Shown in pieces: positions 899 through 9,513 of a stretch of DNA of 9,513 bases. Position numbers and translations under genes: made by a program. The notes beneath the pieces are model-generated. The model made no database searches and was not told the origin of the DNA. It worked only from the letters and a program-made list of their open reading frames with translations. This DNA comes from Polaromonas sp. (lineage in GTDB: Bacteria > Pseudomonadota > Gammaproteobacteria > Burkholderiales > Burkholderiaceae_C). Numbering within the stretch: position 1 is the first letter of the stretch; every line of letters starts with the position of its first letter. The DNA lies in the NCBI GenBank assembly GCA_026786065.1, contig JAJAYS010000078.1, forward strand, positions 1 through 9,513, read 5' to 3'.

Positions 899-1930
899 AT
901 GCTTCCCGCCGCCGCGTCCATTGCCAACGATCCATCTGCTGCCGCGAGATCTGCTGGCCGGGCGAGCCCTTGGCGGCTGTCGGTCGCGCCAATGATGGAC
1001 TGGACCGACCGGCATTGCCGCTACTTTCACCGCCTGCTGTCGCGCCACGCGCTGCTCTACACCGAGATGGTCACCACCGGCGCGCTGCTGCACGGCGACG
1101 TACCGCGCCACCTGGATTTCGACGCCGCCGAGCAGCCGGTGGCGCTGCAACTCGGCGGCAGCGAGCCGCAGGCGCTGGCGCAGTGCGCGCGCCTGGGAGA
1201 ACGCTGGGGTTACCGCGAGATCAATCTCAATTGCGGCTGCCCGAGCGAGCGGGTGCAGCACGGCGCCTTCGGTGCCTGCCTGATGGCCGAACCGCAGCTG
1301 GTGGCCGATGGCGTCAAGGCAATGGTCGATGCGGTCGGCATTCCGGTCAGCGTCAAGCACCGCGTCGGCATAGACCGGCAGGAAAGCTATGGGTTTGTGC
1401 GCGATTTCGTCGGCACGGTCAGCGAAGCCGGTTGCTCAACCTTTGTCGTGCATGCGCGCTCGGCCTGGTTGCAAGGACTGAGCCCTAAAGAAAACCGCGA
1501 CATCCCGCCGCTGCGTTACCCGCTGGTGCACCAGCTAAAGCGCGACTTTCCGCATCTGACCATCGCGATCAACGGCGGCTTTAAAACCGACGACGAAGTC
1601 GGCGCGCAATTGCAGCAACTCGACGGCGTGATGGTCGGCCGGGAGGCTTACCACAACCCCTGGTGGCTGGCGAGCTGGGACCACACCTTTTTCGGCGATG
1701 CCGCGTCCGGCGCCAGCCGCGACGCCATTGAAGCGCAGATGGTTGATTACATGGGCCGGGCGGCGCTACAGGGCACGCGCTGGCCCTCGATTGCGCGGCA
1801 CATGCTCGGCCTGCGCCACGGCCAGCCTGGGGCCCGCGCCTGGCGCCGCGTGTGGAGCGACCATCGCCGGAAAATGCTGCCTGCCCACGAAGTCTTTCGG
1901 ATTGCAAACTCGGAACTCCGGGCTGGCTGA
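899..1930 (+). CDS. dusA: tRNA-dihydrouridine synthase A
   Basis: This 343-residue flavoprotein reduces uridines in the D-loop of tRNA (positions 20/20a for the DusA type) using FMN and NADPH in the cytosol. The TIM-barrel start is seen at VAPMMDWTDRHCR (29-41), a DusA-type signature. The catalytic cysteine is Cys114 in NCGCPS (111-116). Lys153-His154 (VKHRVG) and His185 (VHAR) match the FMN/substrate-binding residues of the family. SPKENRDIPPLRY (195-207) and the late VGREAYHNPWWL stretch (246-257) are also DusA-like rather than DusB or DusC. The length fits the family. The first 25 residues are variable and the start at 899 has only a weak GGGAAA upstream, so the exact N-terminus is less certain than the identity. 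It stands alone, divergent from the M14 lipoprotein gene. Confidence 0.95.
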   Translation: MLPAAASIANDPSAAARSAGRASPWRLSVAPMMDWTDRHCRYFHRLLSRHALLYTEMVTTGALLHGDVPRHLDFDAAEQPVALQLGGSEPQALAQCARLGERWGYREINLNCGCPSERVQHGAFGACLMAEPQLVADGVKAMVDAVGIPVSVKHRVGIDRQESYGFVRDFVGTVSEAGCSTFVVHARSAWLQGLSPKENRDIPPLRYPLVHQLKRDFPHLTIAINGGFKTDDEVGAQLQQLDGVMVGREAYHNPWWLASWDHTFFGDAASGASRDAIEAQMVDYMGRAALQGTRWPSIARHMLGLRHGQPGARAWRRVWSDHRRKMLPAHEVFRIANSELRAG

Positions 1931-2331
1931 GCCCGCTTCTTGAAACGTTTTGTTTCGTTCTTGAGGTAGGCGCTGTTTGTGATCGCGCCGGACGCGTTTT
2001 TGCCGCACCGACCGCAGCTAAACCAACGGGCAGCACGGTCTGGCAGCTTCGTTTCCGAGTGGATCAACGATGTCGCCGAAACTTCGAACGAGTCAAAGCC
2101 ACATTCGCTGCAGTTGCCTCGATGGAAGGCATGGCTGCGTCATTTCTGCGCACCTCGCAGCAAGGGCTCGGGGGTGCGAGTGGCCTTCGGCTTTCTGTCC
2201 GACAGGGGATTGGGAAGTTGATGCGTTGGCCTTTTGACCTAAAGTTTTTAGCATCGGTACCGGCTGGTGTGCGGACCCGTGCGCTGTACTTATTCACAAA
2301 CATTAACCATTTGCAACAACGAGGGCTTGGC
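1931..2331. other. 401-base gap after dusA, no convincing gene
   Basis: The gap is slightly less GC-rich than the flanking genes. The frame of the downstream lipoprotein is open through the whole gap and back into dusA (from 1852), but that translation has no recognisable domain and no signal at its start, so I treat it as chance. Just after the dusA stop there is a short hairpin (GAAAC 1942-1946 with GTTTC 1952-1956) without a following T run, and a direct repeat of TTCTTGA around it. It is too weak to call a terminator. The gap presumably holds the leader and promoter of the propeller lipoprotein, but I could not identify a good -35/-10 pair. Confidence 0.4.
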
Positions 2332-3840
2332 GTGCGCAAACATTCATATTTCTCTGGTCTCGGCAGAGCCGCATTTTCAGTTCTTTTTGTCGCCAGCCTG
2401 GCCGCCTGCGGCGGCGGTGGCGGTGGCGGTGGCGGAAGCGATCCTGCGGCAGGCAGCGCTCAAACACCTTCAAACCCGCCAACCGCAGGAACCGAAACGC
2501 CTGCTTCTTCCGCAACCCGCATCACCGGGCTGAATCAACAAACAAAGCCCAACGCGAGCTACACGGTGGCCAGCGCCGTCGCAGGCACCGTCAACATCAT
2601 GCTGCCAGCCAGTCCGGCCGTCGGTGACACGGTGCGCATCACCGGCGAAAGCGCCAACCAGTGGAGAATCGCGCAAAACCCAGGCCAGTCGATCAACACA
2701 TCGTCACTCGCCAACACCCCGGTGACCGGGCAGACCTGGGCAATCAGCGATCAGACGCCAAGGAATTGGTGGGCAGTGGCTTCTTCGGCCGATGGTTTGA
2801 AGCTGGTTGCTGCGACAAACGGGGCTATTAGTTCATCCGGGCAATCGTTGCCCGCCGGCAGCGACGGTCGGCTTTATACGTCGGCCGATGCGGGCGTGAC
2901 CTGGACAGCGCGCGCCTTGCCAGCGAGTAACCCAGCCTGGTCGTCGGTTGCGTCGTCGGCTGACGGCACCCGTCTGGCTGCCGTGGGACCGGGCAACAGA
3001 ATCTGGACTTCCGCCGACTCCGGCGCGACCTGGCAGGAGTCCGAAATCGCCCGGTTCTGGACGTCCATCAGCATGTCGGCAGACGGTAGCCGGATGGCGG
3101 CGGTGGTCGAAGAGGTGCCCAATGGATCGACCGGAGCGGGCCGGATCTATCTTTACACCCAGACCGCCGGTGCCGCATTCGGCACCGGCACCTGGACCGC
3201 CGTTGCAAGCGCGGTTGCTGGCGCCCGCAACTGGCGCTCGATCACGATGTCCGACGACGGCTCACGGCTCGCTGCAGCCGCACACACCGACGGCGGTTCC
3301 CCGCTCGAATCGGTGTATTACTCGGTCGATTCAGGTGCGACCTGGTCAGCGACTCGGCAAACTTTTAGCAACGCCTACCGAGTTCGTTCTTCGTCCGACG
3401 GCACGCGTCTGGTAATGGCCGAGGGCTACCCCTTAACCGCGACCGGGAGGCTTTGGACATCGACGGATTCGGGTGCCACCTGGATCCAGCGAAATACCTC
3501 CACCACCACCAGCTACAACTCTGTAGACATCTCCGATGACGGTTCCAAAATGCTCGCGGTTCAGGACGGTGGTCAGATTCACTCCTCTGTCGATGCGGGT
3601 GTGACCTGGACGGCCAGAGACACCGGACGCGTCTGGCGCGGCGTTGCGATGTCTTCGGATGGCAATCGGGCAACTGCGCTGGTCAACGGCGGCGCGTCCT
3701 ACGCGTCGCTTGCCAACCGTACCGTCGTCGGAGCTAATGGCGGTTTGGCTGGGGCCCAGAACAACACCATCACGCTGACCTATGCAGGATCCGGTCTGTT
3801 CAACATCACGGCAAGTACCGGGGTTTTCTCGATCCAGTAA
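2332..3840 (+). CDS. Lipoprotein with seven-repeat Asp-box beta-propeller
   Basis: I chose the GTG at 2332 because GAGG lies seven bases upstream and because it gives a clean lipoprotein signal: Arg-Lys-His n-region, hydrophobic core, and lipobox Leu-Ala-Ala-Cys ending at Cys26, followed by nine glycines. The product is 502 residues. A linker and a small beta-rich segment (about 63-140, with VGDTVRITG and WRIAQN) precede seven repeats from about residue 145. Each repeat opens with a [W/Y]-x-[S/G/R]-[V/I]-x-x-S-x-D-G-[S/T/N]-[K/R] strand. Five also carry an Asp-box of the form S-x-D-x-G-x-T-W (for example TSADSGATW). The third has a degenerate box and the seventh lacks it. Seven such units of roughly 40-60 residues predict a seven-bladed propeller. 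The catalytic Arg triad and RIP motif of sialidases were not seen, so this is more likely a binding or structural surface protein. Its ligand is unknown. An alternative start is ATG 2221. Confidence 0.8.
   Translation: MRKHSYFSGLGRAAFSVLFVASLAACGGGGGGGGGSDPAAGSAQTPSNPPTAGTETPASSATRITGLNQQTKPNASYTVASAVAGTVNIMLPASPAVGDTVRITGESANQWRIAQNPGQSINTSSLANTPVTGQTWAISDQTPRNWWAVASSADGLKLVAATNGAISSSGQSLPAGSDGRLYTSADAGVTWTARALPASNPAWSSVASSADGTRLAAVGPGNRIWTSADSGATWQESEIARFWTSISMSADGSRMAAVVEEVPNGSTGAGRIYLYTQTAGAAFGTGTWTAVASAVAGARNWRSITMSDDGSRLAAAAHTDGGSPLESVYYSVDSGATWSATRQTFSNAYRVRSSSDGTRLVMAEGYPLTATGRLWTSTDSGATWIQRNTSTTTSYNSVDISDDGSKMLAVQDGGQIHSSVDAGVTWTARDTGRVWRGVAMSSDGNRATALVNGGASYASLANRTVVGANGGLAGAQNNTITLTYAGSGLFNITASTGVFSIQ
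2410..2436 (+). repeat. Poly-glycine codon run (GGN)9
   Basis: Nine consecutive glycine codons (GGC/GGT/GGA) directly follow the lipidated Cys26 codon of the propeller lipoprotein. Such a flexible Gly tether after the lipobox is common in lipoproteins of Burkholderiales. The near-perfect GGCGGT tract could also vary in length by slippage. Confidence 0.8.
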
Positions 3841-4006
3841 ACAGCACGGGGTGATTCCCTTACTTCTGCGCCGGCTTGACGCTCGGCTGGCCAAGGAGCA
3901 GGACGGATCGCTTTTTTTCAGCTGTGAGTGGTCATTCCCTGCCTCACGGCGAAAGCGCCTCCCCAATTCATATGTTGTACGCTTTGAGGCTGCCCGGCCG
4001 TGGGCG

Positions 4007-4360
4007 ATGGCTTTTAATGTTTTGAAGGGCTCATTGTTGACCGCGCTCCAATCCAGTTCCGGTTTTCAATTCTCATCGGCTGCTCGCCGAACGCGTCGCC
4101 TGGCCTGCGCGTTGGTACCAGCCATACTGCTTTCTGCCTGCGGCGGCGGTGCCGTCTTCATTGGCGACGGCGTTGGCGTCAGTGTGAACGTGCCGCCGCC
4201 CAGCGGCGGCGGTGAGGTGTTGACGGCGGTATCCAACGAACCCGCGGGGCGTAACTGCCGTAACGGTGGCACGCGCGTCGATGCCGGGACTGACGCCAAT
4301 CGCAACAACCTGCTCGACGAGCAGGAAGTTACCAGCACGCGCTATGTGTGCAACGCCTAG
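4007..4360 (+). CDS. Small lipoprotein with DUF7151-like Cys module
   Basis: From the ATG at 4007 the product is 117 residues. An unusually long Arg-rich n-region (AARRTRR) precedes a hydrophobic core and the lipobox Leu-Ser-Ala-Cys, followed by three glycines. The rest is a short linker and one module of the form EPAGxNCxxGGTRVDAGxDANxNxxLDxxEVTSTxYVCN. Two cysteines bracket it and an acidic DANRNNLLDEQE segment resembles a Ca2+-binding loop. I recognise this as the DUF7151-type repeat often found in secreted proteins and lipoproteins; its function is not known. The start is uncertain: in-frame TTG codons at 4034 and 4037 have GAAGGG (4024-4029) just upstream and still give a full signal peptide. 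The gene ends seven bases before the DUF4198 gene, whose ribosome site overlaps its stop codon, so the two are probably cotranscribed. Confidence 0.75.
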   Translation: MAFNVLKGSLLTALQSSSGFQFSSAARRTRRLACALVPAILLSACGGGAVFIGDGVGVSVNVPPPSGGGEVLTAVSNEPAGRNCRNGGTRVDAGTDANRNNLLDEQEVTSTRYVCNA

Positions 4361-4367
4361 GACTCCG

Positions 4368-5228
4368 ATGAAGCTGACTTCCTTTCCGCTGATCGCGGCA
4401 CTGGCTGCGCTGCTCTTTGGCGCGCAGGTTCGCGCGCATGAGTTCTGGTTCGCGCCGGTCACGCAGGCGCTGAAGGCCGGCAGCGCGGCTGAACTGAGCC
4501 TGTATGTCGGAGAGTACTTCGATGGCGTGCTGGTCGGTTTTTCGGCGCCGCAAACCGCCAGTCTGAAGCACATCAGTTCGGCGGGCACCCGGGATCTGCG
4601 CGCGCAGGTTCCCGCCCAGCCGGTGGCGAGTATGTCGGTGCCGTTGAGCGCGCCGGGCACCCACCTGATTGCCTACGACAGCCAGCCGAGCCAGATCGAA
4701 TTGCCGGCCGGGCGCTTTCAGGCCTATCTGCACGACGAGGGCCTGGACTTCATCCAGAAGCAGCGCGAGGCCGCCGGCGCCGCCGACACGCCGGGCCGCG
4801 AACGCTATCGCCGCAATGTCAAAACGCTGTTCGCCGTTGGCGAGGCGCCGGCCGGGCCGGTTGGCCAGGCGGCGGCAGCGCCTGAAAAAATCTACGCCGT
4901 CCGCGTCGGCCACCGGCTGGAGCTGGTGCCGCTGAACGACCCGCTGCGCATGCCGGCCGGCGGCGCGCTGGGCCTGGAGCTGCTGTTCGACGGCAAGCCG
5001 CTTGAGGGCGCGCTGATCAAGGCCTGGCACCGGCGCAGCGGCCAGACTTTGATGATCCGCGCGATCAGCTCGAAGCAGGGGCAGGTCAGCCTTGACTTGC
5101 CCTATGCCGGCGCATGGATGGTCAGCGCGGTACACATGGTGCCGGCGACGGGCGTCAAAGACATCGACTGGGACAGTCTGTGGGCGAACTTGAGCTTCGT
5201 CGTGCCGGGGCGTTCGGTTGGCCGATAA
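4368..5228 (+). CDS. DUF4198 family periplasmic protein, putative Ni/Co uptake component
   Basis: The start at 4368 is supported by AGGA at 4359-4362, which overlaps the upstream TAG stop. The product is 286 residues. A Sec signal peptide (MKLTSFPL, then an Ala/Leu core) ends at V-R-A, so cleavage is predicted after Ala23 and the mature protein would begin at His24 with HEFWFAP. That HxFWxxP opening is the hallmark of the DUF4198 family (COG5266, linked to Co2+/Ni2+ transport). The remainder looks like two beta-sandwich parts, the second near residues 190-285 (GALGLELLFDGKPLEGA; a pattern of family members). No membrane helix follows the signal. No permease or TonB receptor lies beside it, so the metal role is inferred from the family only. 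It is probably in one unit with the DUF7151-like lipoprotein. Confidence 0.8.
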   Translation: MKLTSFPLIAALAALLFGAQVRAHEFWFAPVTQALKAGSAAELSLYVGEYFDGVLVGFSAPQTASLKHISSAGTRDLRAQVPAQPVASMSVPLSAPGTHLIAYDSQPSQIELPAGRFQAYLHDEGLDFIQKQREAAGAADTPGRERYRRNVKTLFAVGEAPAGPVGQAAAAPEKIYAVRVGHRLELVPLNDPLRMPAGGALGLELLFDGKPLEGALIKAWHRRSGQTLMIRAISSKQGQVSLDLPYAGAWMVSAVHMVPATGVKDIDWDSLWANLSFVVPGRSVGR

Positions 5229-5383: not shown

Positions 5384-7543
5384 ATGAACGACGAATTCAA
5401 ACGGGCCACGCTGGCCGACTGGGAGCGCGCTGCCGCCAAATCCGCGCCGGGCGGCAATGTGCAGGCGCTCGACTGGCACACGCCCGACGGCATCACCGTG
5501 AAGCCGCTCTACACGGCAGAAGATTTGGCGGGCTTGCCGCATACCAACACCTTGCCCGGTTTTGAGCCCTTCATTCGGGGTCCGCAGGCCACCATGTATG
5601 CGGTGCGGCCGTGGACGATCCGGCAGTACGCCGGGTTTTCAACCGCCGAAGAATCGAACGCGTTTTACCGCAAGGCGCTCGCTGCCGGCGGGCAGGGCGT
5701 CAGCGTCGCGTTCGATCTGGCGACCCACCGGGGTTACGACAGCGACCACCCGCGCGTCACCGGCGATGTCGGCAAGGCCGGCGTGGCGATCGACTCGGTC
5801 GAAGACATGAAGATTTTGTTTGATCAGATTCCGCTCGACAAGGTCAGCGTCAGCATGACCATGAACGGCGCGGTGCTGCCGGTGCTGGCAGGCTATGTGG
5901 TGGCGGCCGAAGAGCAAGGCGTGGCGCAGGACCAGCTGAGCGGCACCATCCAGAACGACATCCTCAAAGAATTCATGGTGCGCAACACCTACATCTACCC
6001 GCCTGAGCCCAGCATCCGCATCATTGGCGACATCATTGAGTACACGGCTCGGCACATGCCGAAGTTCAATTCGATTTCGATCAGCGGCTATCACATGCAG
6101 GAAGCCGGCGCCAACCAGGCGCTGGAGCTGGCCTTTACGCTGGCCGATGGCAAGGAATATGTCAAAACCGCCATCGGCAAAGGTCTGGACGTCGATGGCT
6201 TTGCCGGACGGCTGAGTTTTTTCTGGGCCATCGGCATGAACTTCTACCTCGAAGTCGCCAAGCTGCGTGCGGCCCGGCTGCTGTGGTGCCGCATCATGAA
6301 AACGTTAGACGCGAAGTCGCCCAAGTCCTTGATGCTGCGCACCCACTGCCAGACCAGCGGCTGGAGCCTGACCGAACAGGACCCCTACAACAACATCGTG
6401 CGGACCACCGTGGAAGCGATGGCGGCGGTGTTCGGCGGCACGCAGAGCCTGCACACCAATTCATTCGACGAGGCGATTGCGCTGCCGACCGAGTTCAGCG
6501 CCCGCATCGCCCGCAACACGCAGCTCATCCTTCAGGAAGAAACGCATATTGGCGCGGTGGTGGACCCGTGGGCCGGCAGCTACATGATGGAAAAGCTGAC
6601 GCAGGACATGGCGGACGTCGCGTGGAAGATCATCGAAGAAGTCGATGCGATGGGCGGCATGGTCAAGGCGGTTGACAGCGGCTGGGCCAAGCTGAAGATC
6701 GAAGCGGCGGCGGCCGAGAAGCAGGCGCGCATCGACTCCGGCCGGGACGTGATCGTCGGCGTCAATAAATACAAACTGCAAACCGAAGACGCGATAGAGA
6801 CGCGCAACATTGACAACGTGGCGGTGCGCGACGCGCAGATTGCAAGACTCAAAGAAATCAAGTCAAAACGCGATGCAGCCGAGGTAGAACGGGCGTTGGC
6901 TGCTATTCAAAATGCAGCAGAAAATGATTCGGGCAATTTGCTGGACTTGTCGATTCAGGCAGTTCGCGCGCGAGCCACCGTAGGGGAAATCAGCGATGCA
7001 CTGGAGGCCGTGTACGGCCGCCATCGCGCCGATACGCAAAAGGTGACCGGCGTGTATGCAGCTGCTTATGACTCGGCCGAAGGCTGGGAAACCCTCAAGT
7101 CCGAGATCAACGCCTTTGCCGAAGCAGAAGGCCGTCGCCCTCGCGTGATGATCTCCAAGCTGGGCCAGGACGGCCACGACCGTGGCGCGAAAGTAGTCGC
7201 TACCGCGTTCGCCGATCTGGGCTTCGACGTGGACATCGGCCCGTTGTTCCAGACCCCCGAAGAATGCGCCCGTCAGGCGATTGAAAACGACGTGCATGCG
7301 GTCGGCGTGTCCACGTTGGCGGCGGGCCACAAGACGCTGGTGCCGGCGATCATCGAAGAGCTTCAGCGCCAGGGCGCCGACGACATCATCGTCTTCGTCG
7401 GCGGGGTGATTCCGCGGCAGGATTACGAGATGCTGTATGAGGCTGGCGTGAAAGGAATCTACGGGCCGGGCACGCCGATACCGGCGAGTGCGAAGGATGT
7501 GCTGGAGCAGATTCGCAAGGCGCTTCCCCGGGATCGCGCTTGA
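5384..7543 (+). CDS. scpA: Methylmalonyl-CoA mutase, single-chain, B12-dependent
   Basis: This 719-residue enzyme interconverts (R)-methylmalonyl-CoA and succinyl-CoA with adenosylcobalamin, the last step of propionyl-CoA use. The TIM-barrel part (about 1-560) contains [16 protein letters not shown] (71-86), [20 protein letters not shown] (187-206) and [10 protein letters not shown] (234-243). By constant offset to the Propionibacterium enzyme, Tyr82, Gln190, Arg200, Tyr236 and His237 match its active-site Tyr89, Gln197, Arg207, Tyr243 and His244. The cobalamin domain (about 585-719) has DGHDRG (596-601) with the cobalt ligand His598, then GVSTLAAGH (641-649) and GGVIP (673-677). All key residues are present and the length equals that of E. 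coli ScpA-type single-chain enzymes, so it should be active as a homodimer. The ribosome site before the ATG is weak. meaB and pccB follow, separated from it by a vapBC pair. Confidence 0.97.
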
Positions 7544-7545
7544 CA
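7540..7545 (+). promoter_or_regulatory. Consensus -35 hexamer TTGACA overlapping the mutase stop codon
   Basis: A perfect sigma-70 -35 hexamer contains the TGA stop of the mutase (7541-7543) and lies 61 bases before the vapB start. The matching -10 is not clear: TATACC follows at 15 bases and TACCTT at 17, both poor. The -10 would in any case fall in the AT-rich inverted repeat, which suits an autorepressed toxin-antitoxin promoter. Confidence 0.4.
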
Positions 7546-7554
7546 GCAGGCTTC

Positions 7555-7581
7555 ATGATATATACCTTAAATATATATCAT
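7555..7581. promoter_or_regulatory. Perfect 10-bp inverted repeat, likely VapB(C) operator
   Basis: ATGATATATA (7555-7564) and TATATATCAT (7572-7581) are exact reverse complements with a seven-base spacer, 25 bases upstream of the vapB start. It is strikingly AT-rich against its surroundings. VapB proteins with an AbrB-type fold bind palindromes of this kind in their own promoter, alone or with VapC. An operator is the simplest reading; a transcript hairpin is the alternative. Confidence 0.7.
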
Positions 7582-7606
7582 TTTCACCGCCGAAACGGAC
7601 TCACCG

Positions 7607-7861
7607 ATGCAAACGCCTGACATTGCGCAACTTTTCATGAATGGTCGCAGCCAAGCCGTCCGGCTGCCCAAGTCGTATCGCTTTGAAGGTACCGAAGTGC
7701 GCATCGAAAAAGTCGGGAACAGTGTCGTGCTGACGCCGGTGGCGCAAGACCGCTGGCGCGCGCTGGAAGACGCGCTGATGGCGTTTGAGTTCGAGCCCGG
7801 CTTTCAGCTTGAGCGTCCGGCCCCGATGCCGGCTTCGCCGCGCGAGGAATTGTTTCCGTGA
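7607..7861 (+). CDS. vapB: VapB-type antitoxin, AbrB/SpoVT domain
   Basis: The 84-residue product has an N-terminal swapped-hairpin AbrB-type DNA-binding domain (about 7-44), seen as LFMNGRSQAVRLPKSYRF and VRIEKVGNSVVLTP. This is the standard VapB form. The C-terminal tail, rich in Phe, Pro and Glu and ending EELFP, is where VapB antitoxins wrap the toxin active site. It should neutralise VapC and, with it, repress its own promoter at the inverted repeat just upstream. Its stop overlaps the vapC GTG start by four bases (GTGA), so the pair is translationally coupled. The gene is unusual in position: it lies between methylmalonyl-CoA mutase and meaB, genes that are normally adjacent in related bacteria. 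Confidence 0.9.
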   Translation: MQTPDIAQLFMNGRSQAVRLPKSYRFEGTEVRIEKVGNSVVLTPVAQDRWRALEDALMAFEFEPGFQLERPAPMPASPREELFP

Positions 7862-8256
7862 AGTACATGCTGCACACCACCATCTGCATCTATCTGATCG
7901 CCAATCGGTCGCTCGAATTGGTCAGCAAGTTTCGCGAAAAAGATCAAGACGGCATTGGCGTTTCTGTCATCGTGGCATCCGAGCTGGCCTACGGCGTGGC
8001 CAAGAGCCGCATGGTCGAAAAAAACCGGGCTACGCTCGATGTTTTTCTGAGTGGCCTGAACGTGCAGGCGATGACGGACAAGGTGATCTGGCACTACGCC
8101 GATTTGCGCTGCAAGCTCGAAGGGCAAGGCCGAATCATTGGCGAAAACGACCAGTGGATCGCCGCGCATGCGCTGGCCAGTGACGCCATACTGGTCACGA
8201 ACAACCGCAAGGATTTCGACCGTGTCGATGGTCTGCGGGTGGAAAACTGGGTATGA
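7858..8256 (+). CDS. vapC: VapC-type PIN-domain toxin, first catalytic Asp replaced by His
   Basis: The 132-residue product is a PIN-domain protein. Active VapC toxins are Mg2+-dependent ribonucleases that cut initiator tRNA or rRNA. The GTG start at 7858 gives the family-like opening MKYMLHTTICIYLI, with GAGGA nine bases upstream; an ATG at 7867 would remove the first strand. The family consensus here is LDTNICIYLI, so His6 replaces the first catalytic Asp and Thr8 replaces the Asn. The other acidic residues are kept: Glu42 (SELAYGVAKS), Asp98 (GENDQWIAAHAL) and the LVTNNRKDF segment (112-120). Losing a metal-binding Asp should abolish or strongly reduce cleavage. The reading frame is otherwise intact and of normal length, which suggests the protein is still made. 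Its stop overlaps the meaB start (ATGA), so it also serves as the upstream cistron for meaB. Confidence 0.9.
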   Translation: MKYMLHTTICIYLIANRSLELVSKFREKDQDGIGVSVIVASELAYGVAKSRMVEKNRATLDVFLSGLNVQAMTDKVIWHYADLRCKLEGQGRIIGENDQWIAAHALASDAILVTNNRKDFDRVDGLRVENWV

Positions 8257-9320
8257 CGTTGCCGTTAGCGGTCGGCATCATGCAGCAGTGCCCGGTTGCC
8301 GCCAATGCCATCCTGGGCGCAGAACCGGCAGTCCAGCGCCGCGCCATCGCCAAAGCCATCACCCTGCTTGAATCCACCCGCGCCGACCACCGCACTCAGG
8401 GCGACGAACTGCTCACTGCGCTGCTGCCCCACACCGGCGCATCGTTCCGGCTTGGAATCAGCGGCGTGCCCGGCGTCGGCAAATCGACCTTCATCGAAGT
8501 GCTGGGACTCTATTTGATAGCGCGCGGTCACCGGGTCGCGGTGCTCACCATCGACCCGTCGTCGTCGCTGTCCGGCGGCTCCATCCTGGGCGACAAGACG
8601 CGCATGGAAAAGCTCTCGGTACACGAGCGCGCCTACATCCGGCCCAGCCCATCGAGCGGCACCCTCGGTGGCGTGGCCGAGAAAACGCGTGAAGCCATGC
8701 TGGTCTGCGAAGCCGCTGGCTACGACATTGTCATCGTCGAAACCGTCGGCGTTGGCCAGAGCGAAACAGCGGTGGCCAACATGACCGACCTGTTCGTGCT
8801 GATGCAACTACCCAATTCAGGCGATGACCTGCAGGCGATCAAGAAGGGCGTGATGGAGCTGGCCGAGCTGGTCCTCATCAACAAGGCCGACATCGACCCT
8901 GATGCGGCGATGCGGGCCGAAGCGCAGATCACCTCGGCAATGCGGCATTTCGGCCTGGTCAACAACGCGATGGGCGGCCCTCACGCTGAGGAACAAGCTC
9001 CCCACTGGCAGCCGCGTGTCCTGAAGCTGAGCGCGCTACACGGCCGGGGCGTGAAAGAATTTTGGGCCGCAGTGACCGAGTTCAGGACGCTGCAAACCAC
9101 AAACGGCCGGCTCGACGCCAAACGCAAGCAGCAGGCGCTGAGCTGGATGTGGGTGCGCATCGAGGCCGGTTTGAAGCAGGCCTTTCGCAGCGACCCGGCA
9201 GTAAGCCAGCTGCTGCCGTCCCTCGTGGCCGATGTGGTCAGCGGTCGGCTTCCGGCCTCAATTGCAGCACGAAATCTGCTTTCAGCCCAATCAAATCGGG
9301 CGCAATCAGCTACAAAATAA
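8253..9320 (+). CDS. meaB: Methylmalonyl-CoA mutase-associated GTPase MeaB (ArgK family)
   Basis: The 355-residue G3E-type GTPase binds methylmalonyl-CoA mutase, gates cobalamin loading and protects the enzyme from inactivation. Visible motifs are the P-loop GVPGVGKST (71-79), DPSSS (101-105), GDKTRM (113-118), the Walker-B-like region IVETVGVGQSE (161-171), the guanine-specificity motif NKAD (210-213) and a G5-like SAL (260-262). The C-terminal part (from about 290) matches the dimerisation region of the family. The ATG at 8253 overlaps the vapC stop and has only a weak GGTGGA upstream, so translation probably depends on ribosomes finishing vapC. ATG 8280 is a possible alternative. No promoter is seen between vapC and meaB. 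The last codons and stop lie within the short GCTAC...ATAGC hairpin at 9309. Confidence 0.95.
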   Translation: MTLPLAVGIMQQCPVAANAILGAEPAVQRRAIAKAITLLESTRADHRTQGDELLTALLPHTGASFRLGISGVPGVGKSTFIEVLGLYLIARGHRVAVLTIDPSSSLSGGSILGDKTRMEKLSVHERAYIRPSPSSGTLGGVAEKTREAMLVCEAAGYDIVIVETVGVGQSETAVANMTDLFVLMQLPNSGDDLQAIKKGVMELAELVLINKADIDPDAAMRAEAQITSAMRHFGLVNNAMGGPHAEEQAPHWQPRVLKLSALHGRGVKEFWAAVTEFRTLQTTNGRLDAKRKQQALSWMWVRIEAGLKQAFRSDPAVSQLLPSLVADVVSGRLPASIAARNLLSAQSNRAQSATK

Positions 9321-9342: not shown

Positions 9343-9513
9343 ATGCAACTGATACTCGAAGAACTTGAAAAAAAGCGCGCTGCCGCACGCCTGGGTGGCG
9401 GGCAAAAGCGCATAGCCGCGCAGCACGGCAAGGGCAAGCTGACCGCGCGTGAGCGACTGGAATTGCTGCTGGACGAAGGCACCTTCGAAGAATGGGACAT
9501 GTTTGTCGAGCAC
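9343..9513 (+). CDS. pccB: Propionyl-CoA carboxylase beta subunit, N-terminal fragment
   Basis: Fifty-seven codons are visible before the window ends. The opening [20 protein letters not shown], then [32 protein letters not shown], is the standard start of acyl-CoA carboxylase carboxyltransferase subunits (PccB type). The enzyme, with a biotin-carrying alpha subunit, carboxylates propionyl-CoA to (S)-methylmalonyl-CoA. GAGAG at 9331-9335 gives a good ribosome site seven bases before the ATG. Placement 22 bases after meaB and downstream of the mutase supports the propionyl-CoA assignment over acetyl-CoA or methylcrotonyl-CoA relatives, since all are alike at the N-terminus. The gene is intact as far as it is seen. 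Confidence 0.9.

What the first reader, a model, noticed from the sequence alone, without database searches (positions are those of the whole stretch)
7544..8256. Toxin-antitoxin pair embedded in the methylmalonyl-CoA mutase operon
mcm, meaB and pccB form one functional set and are usually contiguous in related betaproteobacteria. Here a vapBC-type pair with its own likely promoter and operator sits exactly between the mutase and its chaperone GTPase. This could make meaB expression respond to antitoxin levels and stress, uncoupling it from mutase expression. The sequence shows the layout; the regulatory consequence is inference.
Basis: partly seen in the sequence, partly recalled or inferred. 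Interest (0 to 1): 0.75.

Follow-up and report, generated by a model that had tools for sequence, protein, structure and literature searches.

The report
Disarmed toxin-antitoxin inside B12-enzyme operon
A toxin-antitoxin gene pair sits inside the operon for a vitamin-B12 enzyme, at a spot where related bacteria repeatedly carry such pairs, but here the toxin has histidine in place of an aspartate that is catalytic in relatives, so it is predicted to be harmless and to survive mainly as a likely switch for the neighbouring helper gene meaB.

Summary
The layout is confirmed. vapB (7607-7861) and vapC (7858-8256) lie between mcm and meaB in a probably Polaromonas-like MAG; vapC overlaps vapB and meaB by 4 nt each. 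A 27-nt palindrome precedes vapB.

Two things change the reading. First, the position is not odd for the family. The mcm-meaB junction carries over 150 nt of extra DNA in 89 of 207 resolved junctions, against 0 of 63 for meaB-pccB in the genus. The commonest cargo is a toxin-antitoxin pair: 34 ribbon-helix-helix-like/PIN and 7 vapBC, one a remnant. One PIN toxin family sits there in 39 of its 41 best hits, the query's own locus included.

Second, this VapC has His6 where 118 of 118 aligned best-listed relatives have the catalytic Asp, plus N8T and E119D. Equivalent D7A and D6A mutants are reported non-toxic.

Most likely it is an independently acquired, probably disarmed vapBC that still gives meaB a VapB-controlled promoter and translational coupling. 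Expression and binding are untested; a sequence error at codon 6 cannot be excluded.

The parts
5384..7543 (+). mcm (scpA), methylmalonyl-CoA mutase
   Evidence: NF006944 1284 bits, cut-off 876
7540..7545 (+). TTGACA, candidate -35 element straddling the mcm stop codon (7541-7543)
   Evidence: read from the sequence; the promoter scan gave no full hit
7555..7581 (.). palindrome, arms 7555-7564 and 7572-7581, candidate VapB(C) operator
   Evidence: similar-looking palindromes before other vapB genes, e.g. L329, L352, L212, L195
7607..7861 (+). vapB, MazE/AbrB-type antitoxin, 84 aa
7858..8256 (+). vapC, PIN-domain toxin homologue, 132 aa, GTG start in a 4-nt overlap with vapB
7873..7875 (+). vapC codon 6, CAC (His), where 118 of 118 aligned relatives covering it have Asp
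7879..7881 (+). vapC codon 8, ACC (Thr), where 117 of 118 aligned relatives have Asn
8212..8214 (+). vapC codon 119, GAT (Asp), where 117 of 120 aligned relatives have Glu
8253..9320 (+). meaB, G-protein chaperone of the mutase; ATGA overlap with vapC (an in-frame ATG at 8280 is a second possible start)
   Evidence: NF006958 476 bits, cut-off 329
9343..9513 (+). pccB, carboxyltransferase, start of the gene only
   Evidence: PF01039 23.2 bits, cut-off 22.3

Best explanation
The window carries a complete vapB-vapC pair between mcm and meaB, and its VapC has histidine where 118 of 118 aligned relatives have the catalytic aspartate, so it is predicted to be a disarmed toxin whose likely remaining role is to help VapB repress an internal promoter that would also transcribe meaB. 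Shown: gene order, the 4-nt vapB/vapC and vapC/meaB overlaps, the 27-nt palindrome before vapB, the active-site substitutions in this contig, and the recurrence of toxin-antitoxin pairs at this junction in the family. Inferred: the pair arrived independently of the other junction vapBC lineage; VapB, alone or with VapC, binds the palindrome; antitoxin turnover would raise vapBC-meaB transcription; the ATGA overlap couples meaB translation to vapC; mcm transcription probably also reads through, so meaB would have two inputs.
For: Position and overlaps. Antitoxin and toxin body pass family models. H6, T8 and D119 against D 118/118, N 117/118 and E 117/120 in the 120 best-listed of 2,596 relatives. 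The window departs at only 3 of 49 columns conserved at 95% or more, 2 of them among the four catalytic residues, p 0.015. Catalytic set D7, E42, D98, E119 in Shigella VapC, with D7A used as the inactive control (PMC8923223, passages). H. influenzae VapC1 D6A fails to inhibit growth, though it is poorly expressed (PMC4229260, section 12); mutations that disable that toxin need not abolish VapB binding (passages). A solved entry, 3zvk, holds a VapC chain with Gly at this position together with a VapB chain (whether engineered is not shown). Palindrome; a junction relative, L329, shows TTGACATATACCTTTGGTATATATCAA. No terminator-like site in 7544-7606. Window VapC groups with 37 catalogue proteins (support 99), apart from 9 other junction VapC; well-supported branches force at least two origins of junction VapC.
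Against: No expression, binding or toxicity data. The promoter scan found no full sigma-70 site. The substitution rests on one MAG contig, so an assembly or sequencing error cannot be excluded. At a 99% conservation threshold the active-site concentration is not significant (p 0.19). Many relatives do without any insert: 118 of 207 junctions are 150 nt or shorter, so meaB does not need this promoter in general. GNAT and GIY-YIG genes occupy the same junction, so the site is not specific to regulators. The preference for a 7-nt palindrome spacing among vapB genes is slight (4 of 12).
Confidence: 0.5

Rival explanations
1. Neutral passenger: the pair lies at a permissive insertion site, the toxin is decaying, and meaB is simply transcribed from the mcm promoter, so vapBC has no regulatory effect.
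For: The junction takes many unrelated genes (RHH-like/PIN 34, vapBC 7, GNAT 21, GIY-YIG 19, NYN 4 of 207; some loci count twice). Decayed pairs occur there: L337, where vapB and vapC are both shortened; L248, broken PIN; L259, antitoxin-like gene without PIN.
Against: 35 of 37 clade-invariant VapC positions are kept, VapB passes its family model, the palindrome is intact and both 4-nt overlaps are present.
Confidence: 0.27
2. Working toxin-antitoxin addiction module that stabilises the mcm-meaB-pcc operon; His6 still supports activity, or the His is a sequence error.
For: Other junction toxins look active: 9 of 9 other full junction VapC keep DTN and 48 of 49 junction PIN toxins keep D7. The window's substitution is seen in one contig only.
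Against: D7A and D6A are reported non-toxic in VapC relatives; two further conserved positions changed as well.
Confidence: 0.17
3. Cargo swapping: conserved mcm 3' ends and meaB serve as homology arms, so genes at this junction are exchanged between relatives by recombination, whatever their function.
For: mcm C-termini 82-95% identical to the window's in loci L005-L062 where seen; patchy cargo; only weak agreement of PIN and MeaB distances in 48 loci, Mantel r 0.257, although no permutation of 999 reached it.
Against: It explains arrival, not retention; the nine other junction VapC group together (support 85) and the PIN family's best hits are nearly confined to this site, which suggests residence rather than random exchange.
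Confidence: 0.06

Closest known systems
Enteric and Leptospira VapBC (VapB MazE/AbrB fold, VapC tRNA-fMet endonuclease, NF047863)
   Same: Gene order, overlap, both protein families, palindrome before vapB
   Different: First catalytic Asp is His and residue 119 is Asp; embedded in a metabolic operon with an ATGA overlap onto meaB
vapBC pairs at the mcm-meaB junction of other family members (L172, L189, L191, L192, L202, L225, L329, L347, L352)
   Same: Same slot, same two families
   Different: Their VapC keep the Asp and form another group in the tree
RHH-like/PIN toxin-antitoxin pairs at the same junction (e.g. L032, L171, L246)
   Same: Same slot and orientation, PIN toxin, antitoxin-like gene first
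   Different: Different antitoxin family (mostly sub-threshold RHH/HicB matches) and a different PIN family; first catalytic Asp kept in 48 of 49

Membership tests
VapBC type II toxin-antitoxin | MazE/AbrB-type VapB followed by PIN-domain VapC, overlapping genes | tested here: met
VapBC type II toxin-antitoxin | Four acidic catalytic residues in VapC (D7, E42, D98, E119 in Shigella) | tested here: not met
   H6, E42, D98, D119; so it is described as VapBC-derived, not filed as a working VapBC
VapBC type II toxin-antitoxin | Toxin arrests growth and cleaves RNA, antitoxin neutralises it | not testable with these tools
   needs expression assays
VapBC type II toxin-antitoxin | Autoregulation through an operator before vapB | tested here: inconclusive
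   palindrome present; binding not measured
RHH-like/PIN junction toxin-antitoxin family | RHH-type antitoxin and that PIN family | tested here: not met
   window antitoxin is PF04014; the PIN query finds no match in G000 at 1e-10

The most novel reading that the evidence does not exclude
The Comamonadaceae have made a toxin-antitoxin pair a resident module of the methylmalonyl-CoA mutase operon, in which the antitoxin's operator sets the level of the mutase chaperone MeaB; in this genome the module has been disarmed at the catalytic site and kept purely as a regulator.
Probability: 0.25. Interest if true: 0.82.

Novelty: new variant of a known kind. Interest (0 to 1): 0.6.

Why it matters
Why chromosomal toxin-antitoxin pairs persist is an open question. 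Here one operon junction repeatedly holds them: one PIN family sits there in 39 of its 41 best hits, next to a gene with a clear biochemical job. The window adds a natural test case, a pair whose toxin appears disarmed while antitoxin, operator-like palindrome and overlap remain, so regulation and toxicity could be separated.

Tried and rejected
Unique insertion: rejected by the junction census. Shared descent of the window vapBC with the other junction vapBC: not favoured by the tree, though the nine-row group has support of only 85 and there are few columns. Plasmid origin: none of the 5000 best plasmid records reaches 60% identity (capped list). Rfam RNA in the window: none at gathering score. 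Shared palindrome spacing of 7 nt: 4 of 12 unique best palindromes, p 0.01, with many ties among the 62 stretches, so not pressed. Published link between toxin-antitoxin pairs and mcm/meaB: searches found no paper; one search found 137 papers with three of four terms, and the 10 listed held no 'methylmalonyl-CoA mutase'; the other 127 were not seen. The library lacks most subscription papers.

Papers: PMC8923223 passages; PMC4229260 passages and section 12; PMC4701950 passages; PMC4803016 passages; all others as search listings only.

Sampling limits. Genus set: 87 genomes searched, 70 loci taken (G047 gives two), 69 resolved; truncated or weak meaB matches (e.g. G011, G030, G032, G037, G074) were not taken. 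Family set: 140 of the 144 non-genus rows that I tabulated (G378, G158, G140 and G144 left out; G175, already known to carry VapC beside meaB, was fetched in the place of G158), 138 resolved. The list shows only the best-scoring part of 336 genomes with meaB, so the set leans to MeaB like the window's. L189, L191, L192 and L202 were found through VapC and are not in the 207. Named loci: the first 40 of 80 were analysed for both junctions.

Full report
What is there. The window is contig C78 of a 2.93-Mb, 396-contig genome, 83.6% complete. A genus-mate contig of the same length (G048:C6 and L034, 27,874 bases) is titled Polaromonas sp., so the host is probably a Polaromonas-like MAG (inferred). 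On the plus strand lie mcm (5384-7543), vapB (7607-7861), vapC (7858-8256), meaB (8253-9320) and the start of pccB (9343). vapB/vapC and vapC/meaB each overlap by 4 nt. The 63-nt gap after mcm is 41% GC against 62% for mcm and holds the palindrome ATGATATATA-N7-TATATATCAT at 7555-7581. A perfect TTGACA at 7540-7545 straddles the mcm stop, but no full sigma-70 promoter passes the scan, and the two terminator-like hits lie inside vapB and vapC, near chance level.

The junction is a recurrent insertion site. In the genus, 69 mcm-meaB junctions were resolved: 41 have 150 nt or less and 28 more. In 36 of the 69 a possible meaB start overlaps the mcm stop by 4 nt or the meaB match reaches into mcm. 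Of 63 loci with both junctions resolved, mcm-meaB exceeds 150 nt in 24 and meaB-pccB in 0 (Fisher p 8e-9). In a wider set of 138 family junctions, 61 exceed 150 nt; in that set pccB follows meaB within 150 nt in 127, lies further away in 1, was not seen in the roughly 300 nt fetched in 9, and 1 ran off the stretch. Among 39 resolved of 40 named loci (L034-L073, some of them the same places as genus or family loci and not in the 207), 13 exceed 150 nt at mcm-meaB and 2 at meaB-pccB.

What the inserts are. Over the 207 junctions, seed searches label 34 as RHH-like/PIN pairs and 7 as vapBC (including the remnant L337), 21 with GNAT, 19 with GIY-YIG, 4 with NYN, 1 with the RHH-like gene alone and 7 other; some loci hold two kinds. 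Pfam supports PIN, GNAT, GIY-YIG and NYN/PIN7 for one representative each. The RHH label is weak: of four members tested only one passes a Pfam cut-off (HicB, 22.8 against 21); the others show sub-threshold RHH_1 or HicB matches. In 42 of 93 long junctions (the 89 plus L189, L191, L192, L202) a plus-strand ORF overlaps a possible meaB start by 4 nt; not each such ORF need be a gene.

A toxin family tied to this site. A PIN toxin from L246 (G220) searched in 399 family genomes gave 41 hits at E 1e-34 or better, its own locus among them. Of these, 24 of 24 whose meaB place was already listed lie upstream of it on the same strand, within about 1.1 kb, and are among the junctions with mcm resolved; 15 of the other 17 also lie between mcm and meaB. 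The exceptions are G233, where the pair precedes a pccB-like gene with no meaB nearby, and G464. Weaker hits were not placed systematically; G407:C673 shows no meaB in its stretch and G195, cut at a contig end, lies beside meaB. 48 of 49 such toxins keep the first catalytic Asp; the exception is the broken L248; single departures at other conserved acidic positions occur in L356, L233 and L171. PIN and MeaB distances agree weakly (Mantel r 0.257 in 48 loci, 0 of 999 permutations as high).

vapBC at the junction. Of 63 VapC loci screened, 6 carried mcm and meaB in their flanks, and the census added L329, L347 and L352 plus the remnant L337. By coordinates a VapC fragment at a contig end in G105 also lies beside meaB, but its junction (L307) was not resolved. 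All 9 other full junction VapC keep DTN at the first motif. In a tree of 122 VapC those nine group together (support 85, not strong), while the window VapC lies in a 38-row set with 37 catalogue proteins from P0001-P0038 (support 99). So the window's pair probably arrived separately. The genomic context of those catalogue proteins is not known.

The toxin. Among the 120 best-listed of 2,596 catalogue relatives, position 6 is Asp in 118 of 118 that cover it, position 8 Asn in 117 of 118 and position 119 Glu in 117 of 120; the window has His, Thr and Asp. These are its only departures among 49 columns conserved at 95%; two of the three are in the four-residue active site (p 0.015). If only 99%-conserved columns count, the departures are positions 6 and 8 and p is 0.19. 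A few relatives also carry a changed residue 119 or 42 (P0025, P0026, P0085, P0079). Literature: Shigella VapC active site D7, E42, D98, E119 with D7A as inactive control (PMC8923223); H. influenzae VapC1 D6A does not inhibit growth, with the caveat of low protein level (PMC4229260); mutations that inhibit VapC1 need not abolish VapB1 binding. Solved VapC chains with Gly (3zvk) or Asn (5ed0) at this position exist; whether they are engineered is not shown there.

Mechanism. VapBC complexes are reported to bind operators at their promoters, and toxins of type II systems usually act as corepressors (review PMC4803016, passages). With toxin activity predicted lost, the parts left are a DNA-binding antitoxin, a probable corepressor, an operator-like palindrome and a 4-nt overlap onto meaB. 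The likely outcome is VapB-controlled transcription of vapBC-meaB on top of read-through from mcm. MeaB is the G-protein chaperone that delivers and helps repair the mutase cofactor (PMC10481361, start of abstract in a search listing), so separate control could matter on propionate. None of this is measured.

Verdict. Observation confirmed; interpretation partly supported. The larger result is that this operon junction is a preferred home of toxin-antitoxin pairs in the family, and that the window holds a version likely disarmed.

Noticed in passing
L009, L143, L021, L033, L241 (mcm-meaB gap): A GIY-YIG-like domain reads in frame into MeaB with no stop between, through a linker rich in repeat-like peptides, in 5 of 6 loci looked at: a possible GIY-YIG-MeaB fusion.
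   Followed up: partly
L337: Remnant vapBC at the junction: VapB lacks its N-terminal part and VapC its middle; the remnant still overlaps a possible meaB start by 4 nt.
   Followed up: partly
L355 (G233): RHH-like/PIN pair about 110 nt before a pccB-like gene, with no mcm or meaB match in the stretch.
   Followed up: partly
P0002: Catalogue protein 97% identical to window VapC over 85% of it that begins at residue 21, so lacks motif 1, and has Tyr for Asn beside D98; may be a gene-call artefact.
   Followed up: no
L021 and L182 (G047): One genome has two mcm-meaB junctions, one long and one short.
   Followed up: no
window 1852-5228: Upstream ORFs match sortilin/BNR, DUF7151 and DUF4198 models next to dusA (899-1930), with no evident tie to the mcm operon.
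   Followed up: no
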